A stretch of DNA of 64,000 nucleotides from Magnetospirillum sp. XM-1 (lineage in GTDB: Bacteria; Pseudomonadota; Alphaproteobacteria; Rhodospirillales; Magnetospirillaceae), in contig NZ_LN997848.1 of NCBI RefSeq assembly GCF_001511835.1, forward strand, positions 1,302,001 through 1,366,000, written 5' to 3'. Positions 4,213-14,990 of this stretch are shown piece after piece (the first letter of the stretch is position 1; each line of letters opens with the position of its first letter). The notes beneath the pieces were generated by a model. It searched no databases. It worked only from the letters and a program-made list of their open reading frames with translations, and had not been told where the DNA came from. The position numbers and the translations under genes were made by a program.

Positions 4213-4818
4213 TTAGAGCAGCACATGTTGGGCCACGGGGGCGAAGGAGCGGCGATGGTGGGGGGTGGGGCCCAGGCGTTTCAGCGCGTCCAGATGCTCG
4301 GCCGTGCCGTATCCGGCGTTCCGCTCCCAGCCGAATTCCGGGTGGGACAGGGCCAGTTCGGCCATCATTGCGTCGCGCCGCACCTTGGCCACCACCGAGG
4401 CGGCGGCGATGGACAGCGAGATGCCGTCGCCGCCCACCACGCAGCGCACCGGGCAGGGGAGTTTCGGCGGCCGGTTGCCGTCCACCAGGGCCAGGGCGCA
4501 ATCGCGGCCCAGCGCGCCATAGGCCCGGCGCATGGCGAGAAAGGTGGCCTGCAGGATGTTGAGGCGGTCGATCTCTTCCACCGAGGCCTCGCCGAAGCCG
4601 ATGATGGCGGTCGCCGGCACCAGTTCGGCCAGTTCCTCGCGGATACGCTTGGACAGCTTCTTCGAATCGTCGAGGCGCTCCAGCAGGGTCTTGGGCAGGC
4701 GGGCGGGGTCCAGGATCACGGCGGCGGTCACCACCGGCCCGGCCAAGGGCCCGCGGCCCACCTCGTCGATACCGCAGACCGCGCCGCCGATCTCAGATTC
4801 CAGAGCCAGGTCCGGCAT
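4213..4818 (-). CDS. rnhB: Ribonuclease HII
   Basis: A 201-residue RNase HII that cleaves the RNA strand of RNA-DNA hybrids and excises single ribonucleotides. Family motifs are GIDEVGRGPLAGPVV (catalytic DE), DSKKLS, the ALVDGN segment (third acidic residue) and SIAAASVVAKVRRDAMM, with GYGTAEHLDAL near the C-terminus. The start at 4818 (MPDLALES) is chosen because GGAGG lies 10 nt upstream. An ATG three codons earlier is too close to that site. The 5' end overlaps the preceding antiporter gene by 26 bp, so the two are co-transcribed. Confidence 0.93.
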   Translation of the reverse strand: MPDLALESEIGGAVCGIDEVGRGPLAGPVVTAAVILDPARLPKTLLERLDDSKKLSKRIREELAELVPATAIIGFGEASVEEIDRLNILQATFLAMRRAYGALGRDCALALVDGNRPPKLPCPVRCVVGGDGISLSIAAASVVAKVRRDAMMAELALSHPEFGWERNAGYGTAEHLDALKRLGPTPHHRRSFAPVAQHVLL

Positions 4819-9441: not shown

Positions 9442-11925
9442 ATGGTAGTTTTCTTGCCCCCCGCCACCGCCAGCAGCTCAAGCCTCTCCGCCAAGCCCCT
9501 GAAGTGGTGGCCGCTGGCGCTGTGGGTCGCCGCCATGGCGGTCGTCGTCGTCTGGTCCGCCATGACCGTCATCCGCGACCGCGAGGCCTTTCTGGCCCAG
9601 GCGGCCTTCCGCACCCAATCCATGGCCGACCTCGCCGCCGAGCAGGTGCTGCGCACCGTCGAGGGCGCCGATACCGCGCTTCAGGCTGCCCGCATCCAGT
9701 TTCGCAGCATGGGCGACTGGGACGCGGTGTCCAAGGACCGCAAGACCTGGCAGATGCTCCGTGACTACGCGGATGCGCTGTCGGCCGTCCCCATCCTCTA
9801 TCTGGTGGATCAGACCGGGGCGATCCGGCTGCACGGCCAGAGCTTTCCTTTCCGGCCGTTGTCCATCGCCGAGCGGGAATATTTCAAGCTCCACCGGGAC
9901 ACCCCCGCCGACATGGCCCAGGTCAGCGCACCTGTCATCGGTGCGGTCACCGGCAATCAGGTCATCATCGTCAGCCGCCGGCTGTTCAATCCCGATGGCG
10001 GTTTCGCCGGCGTGGCCGGCGCAACCATGAGGGCCGACGCCTTCCAGGCGTTCTTTCAGACGCTTAGCCTGGGCGACGGCTCCATCGTCAACCTGCAGCG
10101 CGGCGACGGCGTCATCCTGGCCCGCCACCCCGTCAGGGACGGGGCCGTGGGCTCGAAGGTCGACAATTCCAAGGTCTTTCCCGCCATTTCCGAAGGCGGC
10201 GTCAAGGGAACCGCGGTTACCACCTCGCCCCTGGACGGGGTGGCCCGGGTCACGGCGTTCCGGCGCATCGAGCGATACGGCCTGGTGCTCATCGCCGCCA
10301 TTCCGGTGGAAACCGTGCTGGGCGAGTGGCGGCGCCAGACGATCCGCCTGGCCGGCATGGTGGGAACGGGCATCCTGTCGCTCACCGCGCTGTTCGTGAT
10401 GCTGCTGCGGCGCTATCACAACGAGGTCGCGGCCCGCACCGAGCTCAAGAACAGCGAGGCGACCTTAAGCCGCGCCCAAAGTGTCGCCCATATCGGCTCG
10501 TGGCAGGTGGAATTGCCCACCGACCGGGTCCGCTGGTCGGAGGAGACCTACCGCATCTTCGGCCTTTCTCCGGGGATTCCGGTTTCCATGGCCGCCGTGA
10601 TGGAGATGATTCATCCCGAGGACCGCGAACGGGTGCGCGAGGGGCTGGACGCTCTCAGGGGCGGCGGCGGCTTCGAGGTGGAGCATCGCATCATCGCCGC
10701 CAGCGGCGAGGTTAAATGGGTGACGGCCCGCGCCCAGATCACCAAATCCGAGACGGGAGAGCCGCTGGAGATCCTGGGCACCGTCCAGGACATCACCGAG
10801 AAGATGCGGGCCGAAACCGCCATCCGCGAGCACCAGGCCCTGCTGCTGGAGGTCCAGAGCGTCGCCAACCTGGGCTATTACGATTACGACATGCGGACTG
10901 ACCGCTGGCGTTCGTCGCCGATCCTCGACGAGATTTTCGGCATCGGCCCCGATTATCCCCGCAGCGGCCAGGGCTGGCTCGATCTCGTGACTCCCGACAT
11001 GAGGGCCGAAATGGCGGCCTATCTGGGCGAGGTCCAGGCCGGCGACCACGATTTCGACAGAGCCTACACCATCACCCGCCACGGCGACCGAGCCCCGCGC
11101 TGGGTGGCCGGCCTGGGCAAGGTCGAGCGCGACGCCGACGGCAAGCCGGTCCGCATGGTCGGCACCATCAGAGACATCACCGAACAGCGCCGCGCCGAGC
11201 AGGAATTGCGCGACAAGGCCGCCGAACTGGAGCGCTCCAACACCGAGCTCGAGCAGTTCGCCTATGTGGCCAGCCATGACCTGCGCGAGCCGTTGCGCAT
11301 GGTCTCCTCCTACGTGGACCTGCTGGCCCGGCGTTACGGCGACAAGCTGGGCGACGACGCCCGCGAGTTCATCGCCTTCGCCAAGGACGGCGCGTCGCGC
11401 ATGGATCGCCTGATCCTCGACCTCCTGGAATACTCCCGCATCGGCCGCATCACCCGGCCCATGCTGCCGGTGGCCCTGGGGCCGGTGGTGGAGCGGGCCT
11501 TGCGCGCCCTGGCGCCCAAGATCGAGGAAAGCGGCGCCGAAATCGCCACGCCGCCCGAAGTCCTGCCCACCGTGCTGGGCGACGGCGAGGAACTGATGCG
11601 TCTGTTCCAGAACCTGATCGGCAACGCCATCAAGTACCGCTCGCCCGAGCGTGCGCCGGTGATCTCCATCGAAGCCGAGAACACCGGCAAGGAGTGGATC
11701 ATCACCGTGGTCGACAACGGCATCGGCATCGAGCCCAAGTATTACGACCGCGTCTTCCTGATCTTCCAGCGCCTGCACCGCCGGGGCGAATTCGAAGGCA
11801 CCGGCATCGGGCTGGCCGTCTGCAAGAAGATCGTCGAGCACCATGGCGGCCGCATTTGGGTGACCTCCACCCCCGGCGAAGGCACCCGCTTCTCGGTCAC
11901 CCTGCCGCCCATCGGGCAGGTGTAG
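9442..11925 (+). CDS. Membrane sensor histidine kinase with Cache-like and two PAS domains
   Basis: An 827-residue sensor kinase. Two membrane segments (about 22-42 and 303-324) enclose a periplasmic domain of roughly 260 residues that looks like a double-Cache sensor. Two PAS/PAC modules follow (about 340-455, ending GTVQDITEKMRAE, and 460-580, ending GTIRDITEQRRAE). After a coiled coil comes the HisKA H-box YVASHDLREPLRMV (His near residue 613) and the ATPase domain with N box NLIGNAIKY, DNGIGI and GTGIGLAVCKKIVEHHGG. The H-box and C-terminus are of the phytochrome-like type. No response regulator or receiver domain is adjacent, so it is an orphan kinase. Signal and output are unknown. Confidence 0.9.
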   Translation: MVVFLPPATASSSSLSAKPLKWWPLALWVAAMAVVVVWSAMTVIRDREAFLAQAAFRTQSMADLAAEQVLRTVEGADTALQAARIQFRSMGDWDAVSKDRKTWQMLRDYADALSAVPILYLVDQTGAIRLHGQSFPFRPLSIAEREYFKLHRDTPADMAQVSAPVIGAVTGNQVIIVSRRLFNPDGGFAGVAGATMRADAFQAFFQTLSLGDGSIVNLQRGDGVILARHPVRDGAVGSKVDNSKVFPAISEGGVKGTAVTTSPLDGVARVTAFRRIERYGLVLIAAIPVETVLGEWRRQTIRLAGMVGTGILSLTALFVMLLRRYHNEVAARTELKNSEATLSRAQSVAHIGSWQVELPTDRVRWSEETYRIFGLSPGIPVSMAAVMEMIHPEDRERVREGLDALRGGGGFEVEHRIIAASGEVKWVTARAQITKSETGEPLEILGTVQDITEKMRAETAIREHQALLLEVQSVANLGYYDYDMRTDRWRSSPILDEIFGIGPDYPRSGQGWLDLVTPDMRAEMAAYLGEVQAGDHDFDRAYTITRHGDRAPRWVAGLGKVERDADGKPVRMVGTIRDITEQRRAEQELRDKAAELERSNTELEQFAYVASHDLREPLRMVSSYVDLLARRYGDKLGDDAREFIAFAKDGASRMDRLILDLLEYSRIGRITRPMLPVALGPVVERALRALAPKIEESGAEIATPPEVLPTVLGDGEELMRLFQNLIGNAIKYRSPERAPVISIEAENTGKEWIITVVDNGIGIEPKYYDRVFLIFQRLHRRGEFEGTGIGLAVCKKIVEHHGGRIWVTSTPGEGTRFSVTLPPIGQV

Positions 11926-12008
11926 GGGGCGGATTGCCCGGGCGGTCTTGGCAAGGAATTCGGGCTGTTTTAGACCATCGAGCCTTAAATCTGTGCCATC
12001 TCAGCTCT

Positions 12009-12106
12009 CGTCATGCCCGGACTTGTTCCGGGCATCCACGTGACTCCATCTGGGATAGTGGCCGAACGGTCCCACGTGGATGGCCGGGTCGAGCCCGGCC
12101 ATGACG
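12009..12106. repeat. Palindromic intergenic repeat family B, cluster 1
   Basis: Two inverted units, 12009-12040 (CGTCATGCCCGG...CCGGGCATCCACG) and 12075-12106 (CGTGGATGGCCGGG...CCCGGCCATGACG), each itself a hairpin. Related pairs occur at 42576-42652 and 54897-54956. Confidence 0.8.
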
Positions 12107-12130
12107 AGGTGACAGGGTGCTTCCTGCACG

Positions 12131-12179
12131 AGCCCCCACCCCAACCTTCCCCCGGCAAAGCCGGGGGAGGGGGGCAGGG
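12131..12179. repeat. GC-rich palindromic intergenic repeat, family C, copy 2
   Basis: A hairpin of CCCCCACCCC / GGGGGAGGGG arms around TTCCCCCGGCAAAGCCGGGGG, the same design as the copy at 2508-2561 in inverted orientation. Confidence 0.7.
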
Positions 12180-12305
12180 ATGATCCGGATTTATGGCTCG
12201 ATGCTCTAAACCGGACAGACTCTGGAATCATCGAGCCGGAACCCGCGCGATCCATGCTCTCTCCGCCGCTGTTTTGTGGCGAGGGGGGGATTCAAATATG
12301 CGTCC

Positions 12306-12583
12306 AGACAAACCGAAGCCCCGCCGGAGACGTTCGTTCCGCGCGGGGCTTATGGTTTGGGGACCCACAGGTCCTATGTGTTCGGCGCAATGGCCGATAA
12401 GTCATGGTACTGAGCTTTTATAGTACTTGGTGCCACTATATCGGCACCTCAAATTCGACCCGGTGGCGTCATGCTGTCAACATCCTCCTGTCCGGTGTTG
12501 CATTCGCCTCGGGAGAGGCGTCTGGTGCATCGGATATTGTCGTGACAACCTTCCAATCCCGGTACGCCTCCATCTCTGTTACG
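12306..12583 (-). ncRNA. Putative structured small RNA, unknown family
   Basis: The gene-free stretch 11926-12695 contains repeats up to 12179, then this unit. A near-consensus sigma70 promoter (12589-12617) would start transcription near 12583 on the minus strand. A 9-bp GC stem (12316-12351) could end it near 12306, giving about 280 nt. In between are successive local hairpins in minus-strand order: CGCCTC-GAGGCG, CAACA-TGTTG, GGTGCC-GGCACC, GTACT-AGTAC, CGGC-GCCG and GGACC-GGTCC. Base composition is clearly lower in GC than the neighbouring genes. Signatures of SRP RNA, RNase P RNA and tmRNA (tag frame, T-loop, CCA) were looked for and not seen. Two short reading frames of 34 and 37 codons exist on this strand but lack good ribosome sites, so an RNA product is favoured. 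Exact ends are inferred. Confidence 0.45.
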
Positions 12584-12588
12584 GGTTA

Positions 12589-12617
12589 ATTATCGCCAAA
12601 CAGGGGGCAATTGTCAA
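12589..12617 (-). promoter_or_regulatory. Strong sigma70-type promoter
   Basis: On the minus strand TTGACA (12612-12617) is separated by 17 bp from GATAAT (12589-12594): 6/6 and 5/6 matches with ideal spacing. It lies just beyond the clpA terminator and reads away from clpA into a region with no recognisable gene. Confidence 0.65.
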
Positions 12618-12643
12618 GAATTTGCCCCTCATCCTGGGCAAGC

Positions 12644-12670
12644 AAAAGGGCGCTCCGGTGGGAGCGCCCT
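12644..12670 (-). terminator. Rho-independent terminator of clpA
   Basis: AGGGCGCTCC / GGAGCGCCCT 10-bp stem (12647-12670), with TTTT following on the minus strand, 26 bp after the clpA stop codon. Confidence 0.8.
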
Positions 12671-12695
12671 GGTTGGGTCGCCGGTGGCGCGGGGA

Positions 12696-14990
12696 TCATT
12701 CCACCAGTTCGGGGATCTTGTCCGCCTTGGGGGAGGTGGCCAGGAACTCGAATGCCAGCTTGGCATCCTCGCCCACCCGGATGCGGACGATGCCGCCCTT
12801 GGCCAGGCGGCCGAACAGCAATTCCTCGGCCAGGGGCTTCTTGATGTGCTCCTGGATGACGCGGGCCAGCGGCCGCGCGCCGAACGAGCGGTCGTAGCCC
12901 TTCTTGGCCAGCCAGGCGCGGGCCTCGTCGGTCAGTTCGATGACCACGTCGCGGTCGCCCAGCTGGGTTTCCAGCTGCATGACGAACTTGTCCACCACCT
13001 GGGCGACGATTTCCGGCGTCAGGTTGGCGAAGGCGATGGTGGAGTCCAGGCGGTTGCGGAATTCCGGGCTGAACATGCGGTTGATGGCGTCGGTGTCGTC
13101 GCCTTCCCTCGCTTCGCGGCCGAAGCCGATGGCCGATTTGGCCAGGTCGGCGGCGCCGGCATTGGTGGTCATGATCAGGATCACGTTGCGGAAGTCCACG
13201 GTCTTGCCGTTGTGGTCGGTCAGCCGTCCGTGGTCCATGACCTGGAGCAGGATGTTGAACAGGTCGGGATGGGCCTTCTCGATCTCGTCGAGCAGCAGCA
13301 CCGAATGGGGGTGCTGGTCGATGGCGTCGGTCAGCAACCCGCCCTGGTCGAAGCCCACATAGCCGGGCGGCGCGCCGATCAGGCGCGACACCGAGTGGCG
13401 CTCCATGTACTCGCTCATGTCGAAGCGGGTCAGCTCGATGCCCATGATCTTGGCCAGCTGGCGGGCCACCTCGGTCTTGCCGACGCCGGTGGGGCCGGAG
13501 AACAGGTAGCATCCGATGGGCTTTTCCGGCTCGCGCAGGCCGGCTCTCGCCAGCTTGATGGCGCTGGCCAGGGCCTCGATGGCCTTGTCCTGGCCGAACA
13601 CCAGGGTCTTCAGGTCGCGTTCCAGGTTGCGCAACGCCTCCACGTCGTTGGTGGACACGCTTTTCGGGGGAATGCGGGCGATCTTGGCGACGATCTCCTC
13701 CACGTCCCGGACCGTCACCGTCTTGCGCCGCTTGGATTCGGGCAGCAGCATGCGCGACGCGCCCACCTCGTCGATGACGTCGATGGCCTTGTCGGGCAGC
13801 TTGCGGTCGGTGATGTACTTGGCCGACAGCTCCACCGCCGCCTTGATGGCCTCGGCGGTGTAGCGGACCTTGTGGTGGCTTTCGTAATAGGTCTTGATGC
13901 CGTTCAGGATCTTGATGGTGTCGGGGATGGACGGCTCGCTGACGTCGATCTTCTGGAAGCGCCGGACCAGGGCGCGGTCCTTCTCGAAGTGATTGCGGAA
14001 CTCTTTGTAGGTGGTCGAGCCGATGCAGCGGAGCGACCCCGAGGCCAAGGCGGGCTTCAACAGGTTGGAAGCATCCATGGAGCCGCCCGAGGTGGCGCCG
14101 GCGCCGATCACCGTGTGGATCTCGTCGATGAACATCACCGCGCCGTCGTAATTCTCCAGCTCGGTGACCACCGCCTTCAGGCGCTCCTCGAAATCGCCGC
14201 GATAGCGGGTGCCGGCCAGCAGCGAGCCCATGTCCAGCGCGAAGATGGTGGCGTTCTTCAAGACGTCGGGCACCTCCGCGTTGACGATGCGCCGCGCCAG
14301 GCCTTCGGCGATGGCGGTCTTGCCCACGCCGGGATCGCCCACGTAGAGCGGGTTGTTCTTCGAGCGCCGGCACAGGATCTGGATGGTGCGGTCGATTTCC
14401 TCGTCACGGCCGATCAAGGGGTCGATCTTGCCCTGGGCGGCCTTCTTGTTGAGGTTGATGCAATAGGCGTTGAGCGCCTCCTGCCCCTTCTTCACCACCT
14501 TCTCGCCCGAGGCTTCCTCGTCGGCGCCGTGGACGGTGCGGTTCTGGCCGCGGCCCGGCGCCTTGGCGACGCCGTGGCTGATGTAGTTGACGGCGTCGAG
14601 CCGGGTCATGTCCTGGCTTTGCAGGAAGTAGACGGCGTGGCTCTCGCGCTCGGAGAACAGGGCGACGACGACGTTGGCCCCGGTCACCTCCTCGCGGCCC
14701 GAGGACTGGACATGGATGGCGGCGCGCTGCACCACCCGCTGGAAGCCGGCGGTGGGCTTGGGGTCGGTGCCGCGCGGGGACACCAGTTCGGACAGGTTGG
14801 TGTCGATGAACTCGGAAAGGTCCCGCTTCAGCTTGTCGAGGTCGACATTGCAGGCCCGGAGCACCGCCACGGCGTCCTGGTCGTCGGTGAGCGACAGCAA
14901 AAGGTGTTCCAGCGTCGCGTATTCGTGGCGGCGCTCGGAGGCGTGGGACAAGGCACGGTGCAGGCTTTGCTCCAGGTTGCGCGACAGCAT
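12696..14990 (-). CDS. clpA: ATP-dependent Clp protease ATP-binding subunit ClpA
   Basis: A 764-residue AAA+ unfoldase that feeds proteins to ClpP. The Clp N-domain (two repeats, about residues 1-140) is followed by ATPase domain 1 with Walker [14 protein letters not shown] and Walker [10 protein letters not shown], and domain 2 with Walker [14 protein letters not shown] and [12 protein letters not shown]. The loop SAIGFGRE matches the IGF/IGL tripeptide by which ClpA docks on ClpP. The insertion typical of ClpB (long middle coiled coil) is absent, which separates it from ClpB. It lies 43 bp downstream of clpS, whose product binds the ClpA N-domain. It ends at a good terminator. Confidence 0.96.

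What the first reader, a model, noticed from the sequence alone, without database searches (positions are those of the whole stretch)
12306..12617. Unannotated transcription unit: strong promoter, multi-hairpin ~280-nt RNA, GC-stem end, no gene
Seen: TTGACA-N17-GATAAT on the minus strand, then six consecutive short perfect hairpins, then a 9-bp GC stem. The region is gene-free, lower in GC than its neighbours, and is insulated from clpA by clpA's own terminator. It matches none of the RNAs I could check by motif (SRP RNA, RNase P RNA, tmRNA). The best inference is a structured small RNA. Two short frames (34 and 37 codons) leave a small-protein reading possible.
Basis: partly seen in the sequence, partly recalled or inferred. 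Interest (0 to 1): 0.78.

Follow-up and report, generated by a model that had tools for sequence, protein, structure and literature searches.

The report
RNA gene with Pro-Pro mini-ORF
Between two bacterial genes lies an RNA gene, shared by many Alphaproteobacteria and absent from the RNA library searched, that carries a tiny conserved reading frame starting Met-Thr-Pro-Pro, a kind of sequence known to slow ribosomes, so it may be a free-standing RNA that reads the state of protein synthesis.

Summary
In detail: the minus strand carries a near-consensus promoter, a structured RNA of about 275 nt and a terminator, downstream of clpA and insulated from it. Rfam does not know it. I read 83 members, from one genus to several families of Alphaproteobacteria. 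In the 46 found by BLAST or a full-length model, codons 2-4 vary almost only at third positions (39 of 43 minority letters) and the start is AUG in 44. An in-frame stop follows within 12 codons of codon 4 in 70 of 83, against 29 and 35 in the other frames. Hairpins show compensatory changes; in 17 members a pseudoknot does too. The first hairpin begins 25 nt from the AUG in 35 of 37 aligned members, about where a ribosome paused on the Pro-Pro pair would reach. No same-strand downstream gene is shared between genera among 46 loci compared, so it looks like a stand-alone RNA gene. Best reading: an RNA gated by a ribosome pausing on Met-Thr-Pro-Pro. RNA and mini-ORF are well supported; pausing, signal and targets are inferred.

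The parts
12589..12617 (-). sigma-70-type promoter TTGACA-N17-GATAAT; predicted transcript start near 12582
   Evidence: conserved in the alignment of relatives
12308..12582 (-). the RNA, about 275 nt (ends predicted, not measured)
12514..12571 (-). 5' domain: predicted hairpin starting GGAGGCG; differs between clades, and seems absent in the shortest members
   Evidence: fold prediction only; alignment; short members read by eye
12484..12489 (-). Shine-Dalgarno AGGAGG, 11 nt before the AUG
12449..12472 (-). mini-ORF ATG ACG CCA CCG GGT CGA ATT TGA = MTPPGRI*
   Evidence: third-position variation, conserved start and in-frame stop in relatives
12429..12448 (-). hairpin H0 (GGTGCC...GGCACC), first base at +25 from the A of the AUG, directly after the stop codon
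12382..12397 (-). hairpin A (TCGGC...GCCGA)
   Evidence: compensatory changes
12361..12374 (-). hairpin B (GGACC...GGTCC)
   Evidence: compensatory changes
12309..12359 (-). terminator: 9-bp stem AAGCCCCGC/GCGGGGCTT inside an outer 6-bp stem, ending CGGTTTG
12647..12670 (-). terminator-like hairpin of clpA, upstream of the RNA's promoter
12696..14990 (-). clpA, the upstream neighbour (upstream also in other genera)

Best explanation
A stand-alone RNA gene of Alphaproteobacteria. SHOWN by comparison: own promoter, structured RNA, terminator, and inside it a Shine-Dalgarno plus a mini-ORF M-T-P-P-(G/D/A/K...)-stop under selection at the peptide level. INFERRED: ribosomes initiate at the mini-ORF and pause with the second proline in the P site, a pause that EF-P normally relieves. 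The paused ribosome's leading edge then sits at the foot of hairpin H0, which starts at +25. How long it stays there depends on EF-P activity, charged tRNA-Pro or ribosome supply, and decides whether H0 and the downstream hairpins (in some clades a pseudoknot) stay folded or are opened. That sets the RNA's stability or its availability for action in trans. No same-strand gene behind it is shared between genera, so the output is taken to be the RNA itself, not read-through into an operon. Target unknown.
For: Relatives: BLAST, 13 of 17 genus genomes (own included) with E<=1e-18; covariance model R1, 16 of 17, the missing one 79% complete. Coding: in 46 members found by BLAST or R1, codons 2-4 have 39 minority letters at third positions against 2 and 2 at first and second; AUG in 44 of 46. 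Stop in frame within 12 codons of codon 4: 70 of 83, against 29 and 35 in the other frames, Fisher 9e-11 and 2e-8, sequences counted as if independent. Pause logic: residue 5 is G 46, D 16, A 7, K 5, E 2, Q 2, T 2, I 2, N 1 of 83. Geometry: H0 starts at +25 in 19 of 20 (A2) and 16 of 17 (A5) aligned members. Structure: A5, 92.1% of cells paired, 14 of 30 pairs changed on both sides, 0 of 500 shuffles as good; pseudoknot paired in 17 of 17, one pair seen as UA 14, CG 1, GC 1, GU 1. Stand-alone: among 46 loci compared, downstream genes shared between genera lie on the opposite strand, while clpA is upstream in 15 loci of 5 genera; promoter-like site in 46 of 83 (14 of 415 at random places), terminator-like in 72 of 83 (51 of 415). 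EF-P is encoded in the genome.
Against: No transcript, ribosome footprint or pause was measured. L007 and L011 have ACG for AUG; L015 (MTPSG), L016 (MTPQG) and L071 (MKSPG) have lost the Pro-Pro pair. In 13 of 83 members the frame runs more than 12 codons past codon 4, in some through H0, so the stop position is not fixed. K, Q, T and I at residue 5 (11 of 83) are weak or untested pause contexts as I recall. In family f19 the first hairpin starts near +18 (read by eye), and single-sequence folding of all 83 puts the first stem of 5 bp at many positions, +25 in 12. The pseudoknot was not established in the window's own clade. Spacing from the Shine-Dalgarno to the AUG, 11 nt here, is longer than the usual optimum (recalled). 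No promoter-like site reached the score in 37 of 83 and no terminator-like site in 11 of 83. Output and targets are unknown.
Confidence: 0.5

Rival explanations
1. Dual-use RNA in which translation only protects or remodels the RNA; MTPP is conserved for efficient initiation or early elongation, without sensing EF-P or proline.
For: Conservation is concentrated at the start region; C-terminal residues and stop position vary; the Shine-Dalgarno/mini-ORF unit occurs twice in L100 and L153.
Against: Efficient initiation would not demand two prolines at codons 3 and 4; the +25 hairpin geometry suits a ribosome held at codon 4.
Confidence: 0.2
2. Purely base-pairing sRNA; the C-rich ACNCCNCC is a seed against Shine-Dalgarno sequences or a lock on its own Shine-Dalgarno.
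For: In ACT-type members GGAG can pair with CUCC; predicted pairing averages 0.7-0.8 around -13 to -10 and +5 to +8 over 83 members. The C-rich loop of the alphaproteobacterial sRNA CcnA binds G-rich 5' UTRs (PMC8959179, passages).
Against: ACG or ACA stands in 28 of 46 members, which breaks that pairing, while GGAGG is kept in 28 of those 28. Frame, AUG and stop conservation is unexplained.
Confidence: 0.1
3. A short peptide MTPP... is itself the active product.
For: Peptide-level selection. A leader peptide can act in trans: peTrpL of Sinorhizobium (PMC7298713, start of abstract in listing).
Against: Everything after Pro-Pro varies in sequence and length (5 to 45 residues), and a structured RNA would be superfluous.
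Confidence: 0.1
4. Attenuator-like leader: ribosome position controls read-through of the terminator into the next gene.
For: Mini-ORF, hairpins, terminator is the anatomy of an attenuator; mgtP of Salmonella senses charged tRNA-Pro that way (PMC8092293, passages). In some members the nearest called gene downstream is on the same strand.
Against: Among 46 loci, same-strand downstream genes are shared only within a genus; those shared between genera are on the opposite strand. In the window the next gene is convergent.
Confidence: 0.08

Closest known systems
rnTrpL/peTrpL, the trp-attenuator sRNA of Sinorhizobium meliloti
   Same: Small alphaproteobacterial RNA that carries a translated leader-type mini-ORF and is described as dual-function (PMC10117765, passages; PMC7298713, start of abstract in listing).
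   Different: rnTrpL corresponds to the trp attenuator and is leaderless, starting with the AUG; this RNA has its own promoter, a strong Shine-Dalgarno, Met-Thr-Pro-Pro, and in the window no same-strand gene behind it.
mgtP (with mgtM) leader ORFs of Salmonella mgtCBRU
   Same: Short leader ORF that responds to charged tRNA-Pro (PMC8092293, figure-legend passage).
   Different: Cis leader of one operon in another class of bacteria; no sequence relation was sought.
uORF-controlled DUF1127 leader of S. meliloti
   Same: Alphaproteobacterial RNA with a short ORF whose early C-rich codons matter for control (PMC12218461, passages).
   Different: Transcription attenuation of a downstream gene, through accessibility of the codons to a factor such as Rho; the words MTPP and proline do not occur in its main text.
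CcnA of Caulobacter crescentus
   Same: 182-nt alphaproteobacterial trans-acting RNA with a C-rich loop (PMC8959179, passages).
   Different: Gene at the replication origin; the passages seen name no ORF within it. Its sequence was not compared.
SgrS-type dual-function sRNAs
   Same: Small RNA with a short ORF (SgrS is named so in a passage of PMC7685610).
   Different: The SgrS ORF makes a functional protein of some 40 residues (recalled); here the commonest peptide has 7 residues (34 of 83) and only its start is conserved.

Membership tests
Any Rfam 15 family | score at or above the curated gathering threshold | tested here: not met
   Whole window: 0 matches. 12150-12720 at E<=10: two matches far below threshold. 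Relatives: 16 loci at gathering threshold and 18 loci at E<=1; none of their four matches lies on the RNA.
6S RNA | RF00013 match | tested here: not met
   No match in the window; L167 has a 6S RNA about 5.8 kb from its copy of this RNA.
tmRNA, SRP RNA, RNase P RNA | match to the Rfam models | tested here: not met
   no match in the window.
Leader-peptide attenuator | translated short ORF ahead of hairpins and a terminator | tested here: met
   (translation inferred from conservation, not measured).
Leader-peptide attenuator | a regulated gene downstream on the same strand, conserved with the leader | tested here: not met
   on 46 loci: no same-strand downstream gene shared between genera; in the window the next gene is convergent. 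The other 37 members were not clustered.
Dual-function sRNA | a base-pairing function in trans | not tested
   No target search was made.
Dual-function sRNA | a conserved ORF | tested here: met
EF-P-dependent pause element | consecutive prolines in a pause-prone context | tested here: met
   Pro-Pro kept in 43 of the 46 members found by BLAST/R1; residue 5 is G, D, A, E or N in 72 of 83 (that these contexts pause is recalled).
EF-P-dependent pause element | measured ribosome pause relieved by EF-P | not testable with these tools
   Needs toeprinting or ribosome profiling.

The most novel reading that the evidence does not exclude
A class of free-standing RNA sensors: a ribosome held at Met-Thr-Pro-Pro, placed so that its front edge meets a hairpin and in some clades a pseudoknot, reports EF-P activity, tRNA-Pro charging or translation capacity through the state of the RNA itself, acting in trans. 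It would be a leader peptide freed from its operon, spread through Alphaproteobacteria.
Probability: 0.3. Interest if true: 0.9.

Novelty: new variant of a known kind. Interest (0 to 1): 0.78.

Why it matters
The proline-sensing leader ORF met in the literature here (mgtP) acts in cis, ahead of the genes it controls. A stand-alone, widespread RNA with a conserved Pro-Pro mini-ORF would show that ribosome pausing can be turned into an RNA signal without an operon. It is directly testable: a single gene, found in genomes that I take from contig lengths to be Magnetospirillum magneticum AMB-1 and M. gryphiswaldense MSR-1 (recalled lengths). It also warns that RNAs filed as non-coding may carry ORFs of 5-12 codons that fall below the usual length cut-offs of annotation.

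Tried and rejected
Known RNA families: rejected. A sub-threshold RF02600 match in L075 (E 0.013) lies beside the RNA on the other strand. Attenuator with a conserved target gene: not supported. Shine-Dalgarno/ORF pairing as the sole reason for the conserved motif: rejected. An extension of the pseudoknot to the genus: by eye only L001 fits, so not claimed. Plasmid search: no match. Searching families f46 (17 genomes) and f45 (5 genomes) added one member, L178. Phylum control: 5 of 398 genomes matched at E<=0.001: the own genome, L098's genome, and L179, L180, L181. L179, the only one outside the class, and L181 lie inside long ORFs on the opposite strand (333 and 303 codons) and are judged false; L180, inside the class, is intergenic with a frame MTPPGQIV*, is undecided and was left out.

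Ascertainment: of the 83 members, 21 were found with core model R2 and 16 with a core pattern, so their motif is conserved by construction; codon-position counts use only the 46 found by BLAST or R1 (both of which contain the core too). Of 36 genomes matched, the own one aside, 29 gave loci: I judged 17 true (L096-L111 and L122) and dropped 12 as chance matches or undecided; the other 6 were not read. Of 20 weak R1 loci fetched, I kept 16 and dropped L086, L087, L091 and L092 as false; five more weak matches were not fetched. From only L135, L146 and L148 were added; its other new genomes were not read. Nine of the 25 loci were dropped as duplicates. Weak BLAST loci (L017-L030, L036-L043) were not used. 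These judgements were mine, by reading. The random places used as control are mostly coding, hence a lenient control.

Papers: PMC9549626, PMC8129111, PMC11611912, PMC8092293, PMC12218461, PMC7685610, PMC10117765 and PMC8959179 were seen as passages only; PMC7298713 as a listing. That I found no description of this RNA in print rests on searches in an open-access library only (the string MTPPG occurs there once, in an unrelated paper); supplementary tables could not be read.

Full report
What is there. On the minus strand, downstream of clpA, lies a promoter TTGACA-N17-GATAAT (12617-12589), then about 275 nt that fold well, then a terminator. clpA has a terminator-like hairpin before it (12670-12647). 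The next gene, a PAS/histidine-kinase sensor at 9442-11925, is convergent. The Rfam scan of the whole window gives no match, and a permissive scan of the region gives two matches far below threshold.

Relatives. BLAST of 351 nt over the 17 genomes of the genus, own included, gives 13 strong loci (E<=1e-18). One genome has a contig of 4,967,148 bases, which I recall as the length of M. magneticum AMB-1, so the genus is probably Magnetospirillum in the broad sense. A MAFFT alignment shows a conserved promoter, core and terminator, with RNA length near 283 nt in most. A covariance model of the 3' part (R1) matches 39 of 55 family genomes at E<=0.1, 35 of them at E<=1e-5, including 16 of 17 genus genomes, and 55 of 297 order genomes at E<=0.01, some of them false. 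A model of the core alone (R2) matches 59 of 317 order genomes and 36 of 385 class genomes at E<=0.01. Of the 29 loci given for those class hits besides the window's own, I judged 17 true. In 398 genomes of the phylum, 5 matched at E<=0.001; the single one outside the class lies inside a 333-codon ORF on the other strand. A motif scan of named genomes found 25 loci, titled as Rhodospirillales, Rhodospirillaceae, Acetobacteraceae, Rhodopila, Dongia, Defluviicoccus, unclassified Alphaproteobacteria or Proteobacteria, and two Marinimicrobia.

The core is a mini-ORF. The strongest conservation is AGGAGG-N11-ATGACGCCACCGGGT. In relatives the bases change as codons do. Among 46 members found by BLAST or R1, codon 2 is ACG 19, ACT 17, ACA 9, AAG 1; codon 3 is CCA 36, CCG 9, TCA 1; codon 4 is CCG 40, CCC 2, CCT 2, TCG 1, CAG 1. 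Of 43 minority letters in codons 2-4, 39 are at third positions. Three more distant members use AAT (Asn) for codon 2, as in MNPPD* of L110. After the core, an in-frame stop comes within 12 codons of codon 4 in 70 of 83 members, against 29 and 35 in the other two frames; search model R2 ends at codon 7, so most of this stretch was outside it. The commonest peptide length is 7 (34 of 83). Two members, L100 and L153, carry the Shine-Dalgarno plus mini-ORF twice, 90 and 99 nt apart. Counts are per sequence, and relatives are not independent.

Exceptions. L007 and L011 have ACG at the start. L015 and L016, of the same genus, and L071 have lost one proline of the pair. In 13 of 83 the peptide is longer than 16 residues, up to 45.

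The structure. In the window's family, RNAalifold finds H0, hairpin A, hairpin B and the terminator; 14 of 35 pairs have changes on both sides in A1 and 9 of 34 in A2. In a second set of 17 members, chosen by me because H0 and a downstream GTCCAAG-like motif could be seen (A5), I wrote down H0, a pseudoknot between the H0 loop (CUUGG) and the downstream CCAAG, hairpins A and B and the terminator. Of 496 cells, 92.1% pair; 14 of 30 pairs have changes on both sides; none of 500 shuffles matches; sliding the partners drops pairing to 34-50%. The pseudoknot pairs in 17 of 17, with one of its five pairs seen as UA 14, CG 1, GC 1, GU 1 and four invariant. The structure and the choice of sequences lean towards this result. 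I did not establish the pseudoknot in the window's own clade.

Geometry. By the alignments, H0 begins at +25 from the AUG in 19 of 20 and 16 of 17 members. A ribosome with the second proline codon (+10 to +12) in the P site has its front edge about 15-16 nt downstream of the first P-site base (recalled), that is at +25 or +26. So the conserved spacing puts the hairpin at the mouth of a ribosome paused on Pro-Pro. Folding each of the 83 alone is noisier: the first predicted stem of 5 bp starts at +25 in 12, the commonest single place, and elsewhere in the rest. Residue 5 is G, D, A, E or N in 72 of 83; G and D are recalled as strong EF-P-dependent contexts. EF-P is encoded in the genome.

Stand-alone. 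I compared translated flanks of the 46 BLAST/R1 loci. clpA is upstream in 15 loci of 5 genera, an MgtE-type transporter gene in 6 of one genus. Downstream, sharing is mostly within a genus; where genera share a gene (a DHDPS-family gene in L075, L077, L083; a LeuC-type gene in L080 and L084 with a related stretch in L083; a LipB-type gene in L010 and L073), it lies on the opposite strand. The other 37 members were not clustered. A promoter-like site lies within 240 nt upstream in 46 of 83 members against 14 of 415 random places in the same loci, and a terminator-like site downstream in 72 of 83 against 51 of 415. In the shortest members (for example L170) a -10-like box lies just before the Shine-Dalgarno and the RNA would be about 150-170 nt (read by eye). 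The minimal unit is therefore Shine-Dalgarno, MTPP mini-ORF, hairpins, terminator.

Interpretation. That this is an RNA gene containing a translated mini-ORF I hold at about 0.9. That the ribosome pauses on Pro-Pro and thereby gates the RNA is the best explanation of why two prolines, the start region and the +25 hairpin are kept while the rest of the peptide drifts; I hold it at about 0.5. What the RNA does to the cell is open. Closest known: rnTrpL/peTrpL, mgtP, a DUF1127 uORF leader and CcnA, each different as listed. Ten literature searches of an open-access library brought up no description of it.

Noticed in passing
window 12003-12112: A 36-nt inverted repeat with 30 nt between the arms (12007-12108); this stretch is a dispersed repeat with 53 matches at E<=0.001 in the genome, some of them the two strands of one place.
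   Followed up: partly
window 12145-12171: A second short GC-rich inverted repeat between the dispersed repeat and the RNA gene.
   Followed up: no
L100 near 1500; L153 about 4530-4670: The Shine-Dalgarno plus mini-ORF unit occurs twice, 90 and 99 nt apart.
   Followed up: partly
L153 4271-4381 minus: Rfam rpsB sRNA match just above its threshold, on the other strand upstream of the mini-ORFs.
   Followed up: no
   Followed up: partly
L065-L067, L069, L070, L072 upstream flank: In six relatives of one genus the RNA follows an MgtE-type transporter gene (Pfam checked for L072 only) instead of clpA, so the RNA gene or its surroundings moved within the family.
   Followed up: partly
L180 near 1500: An intergenic MTPPGQIV* frame with AGAGGAG directly before the AUG, in another family of the class; possible distant member, not counted.
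   Followed up: partly
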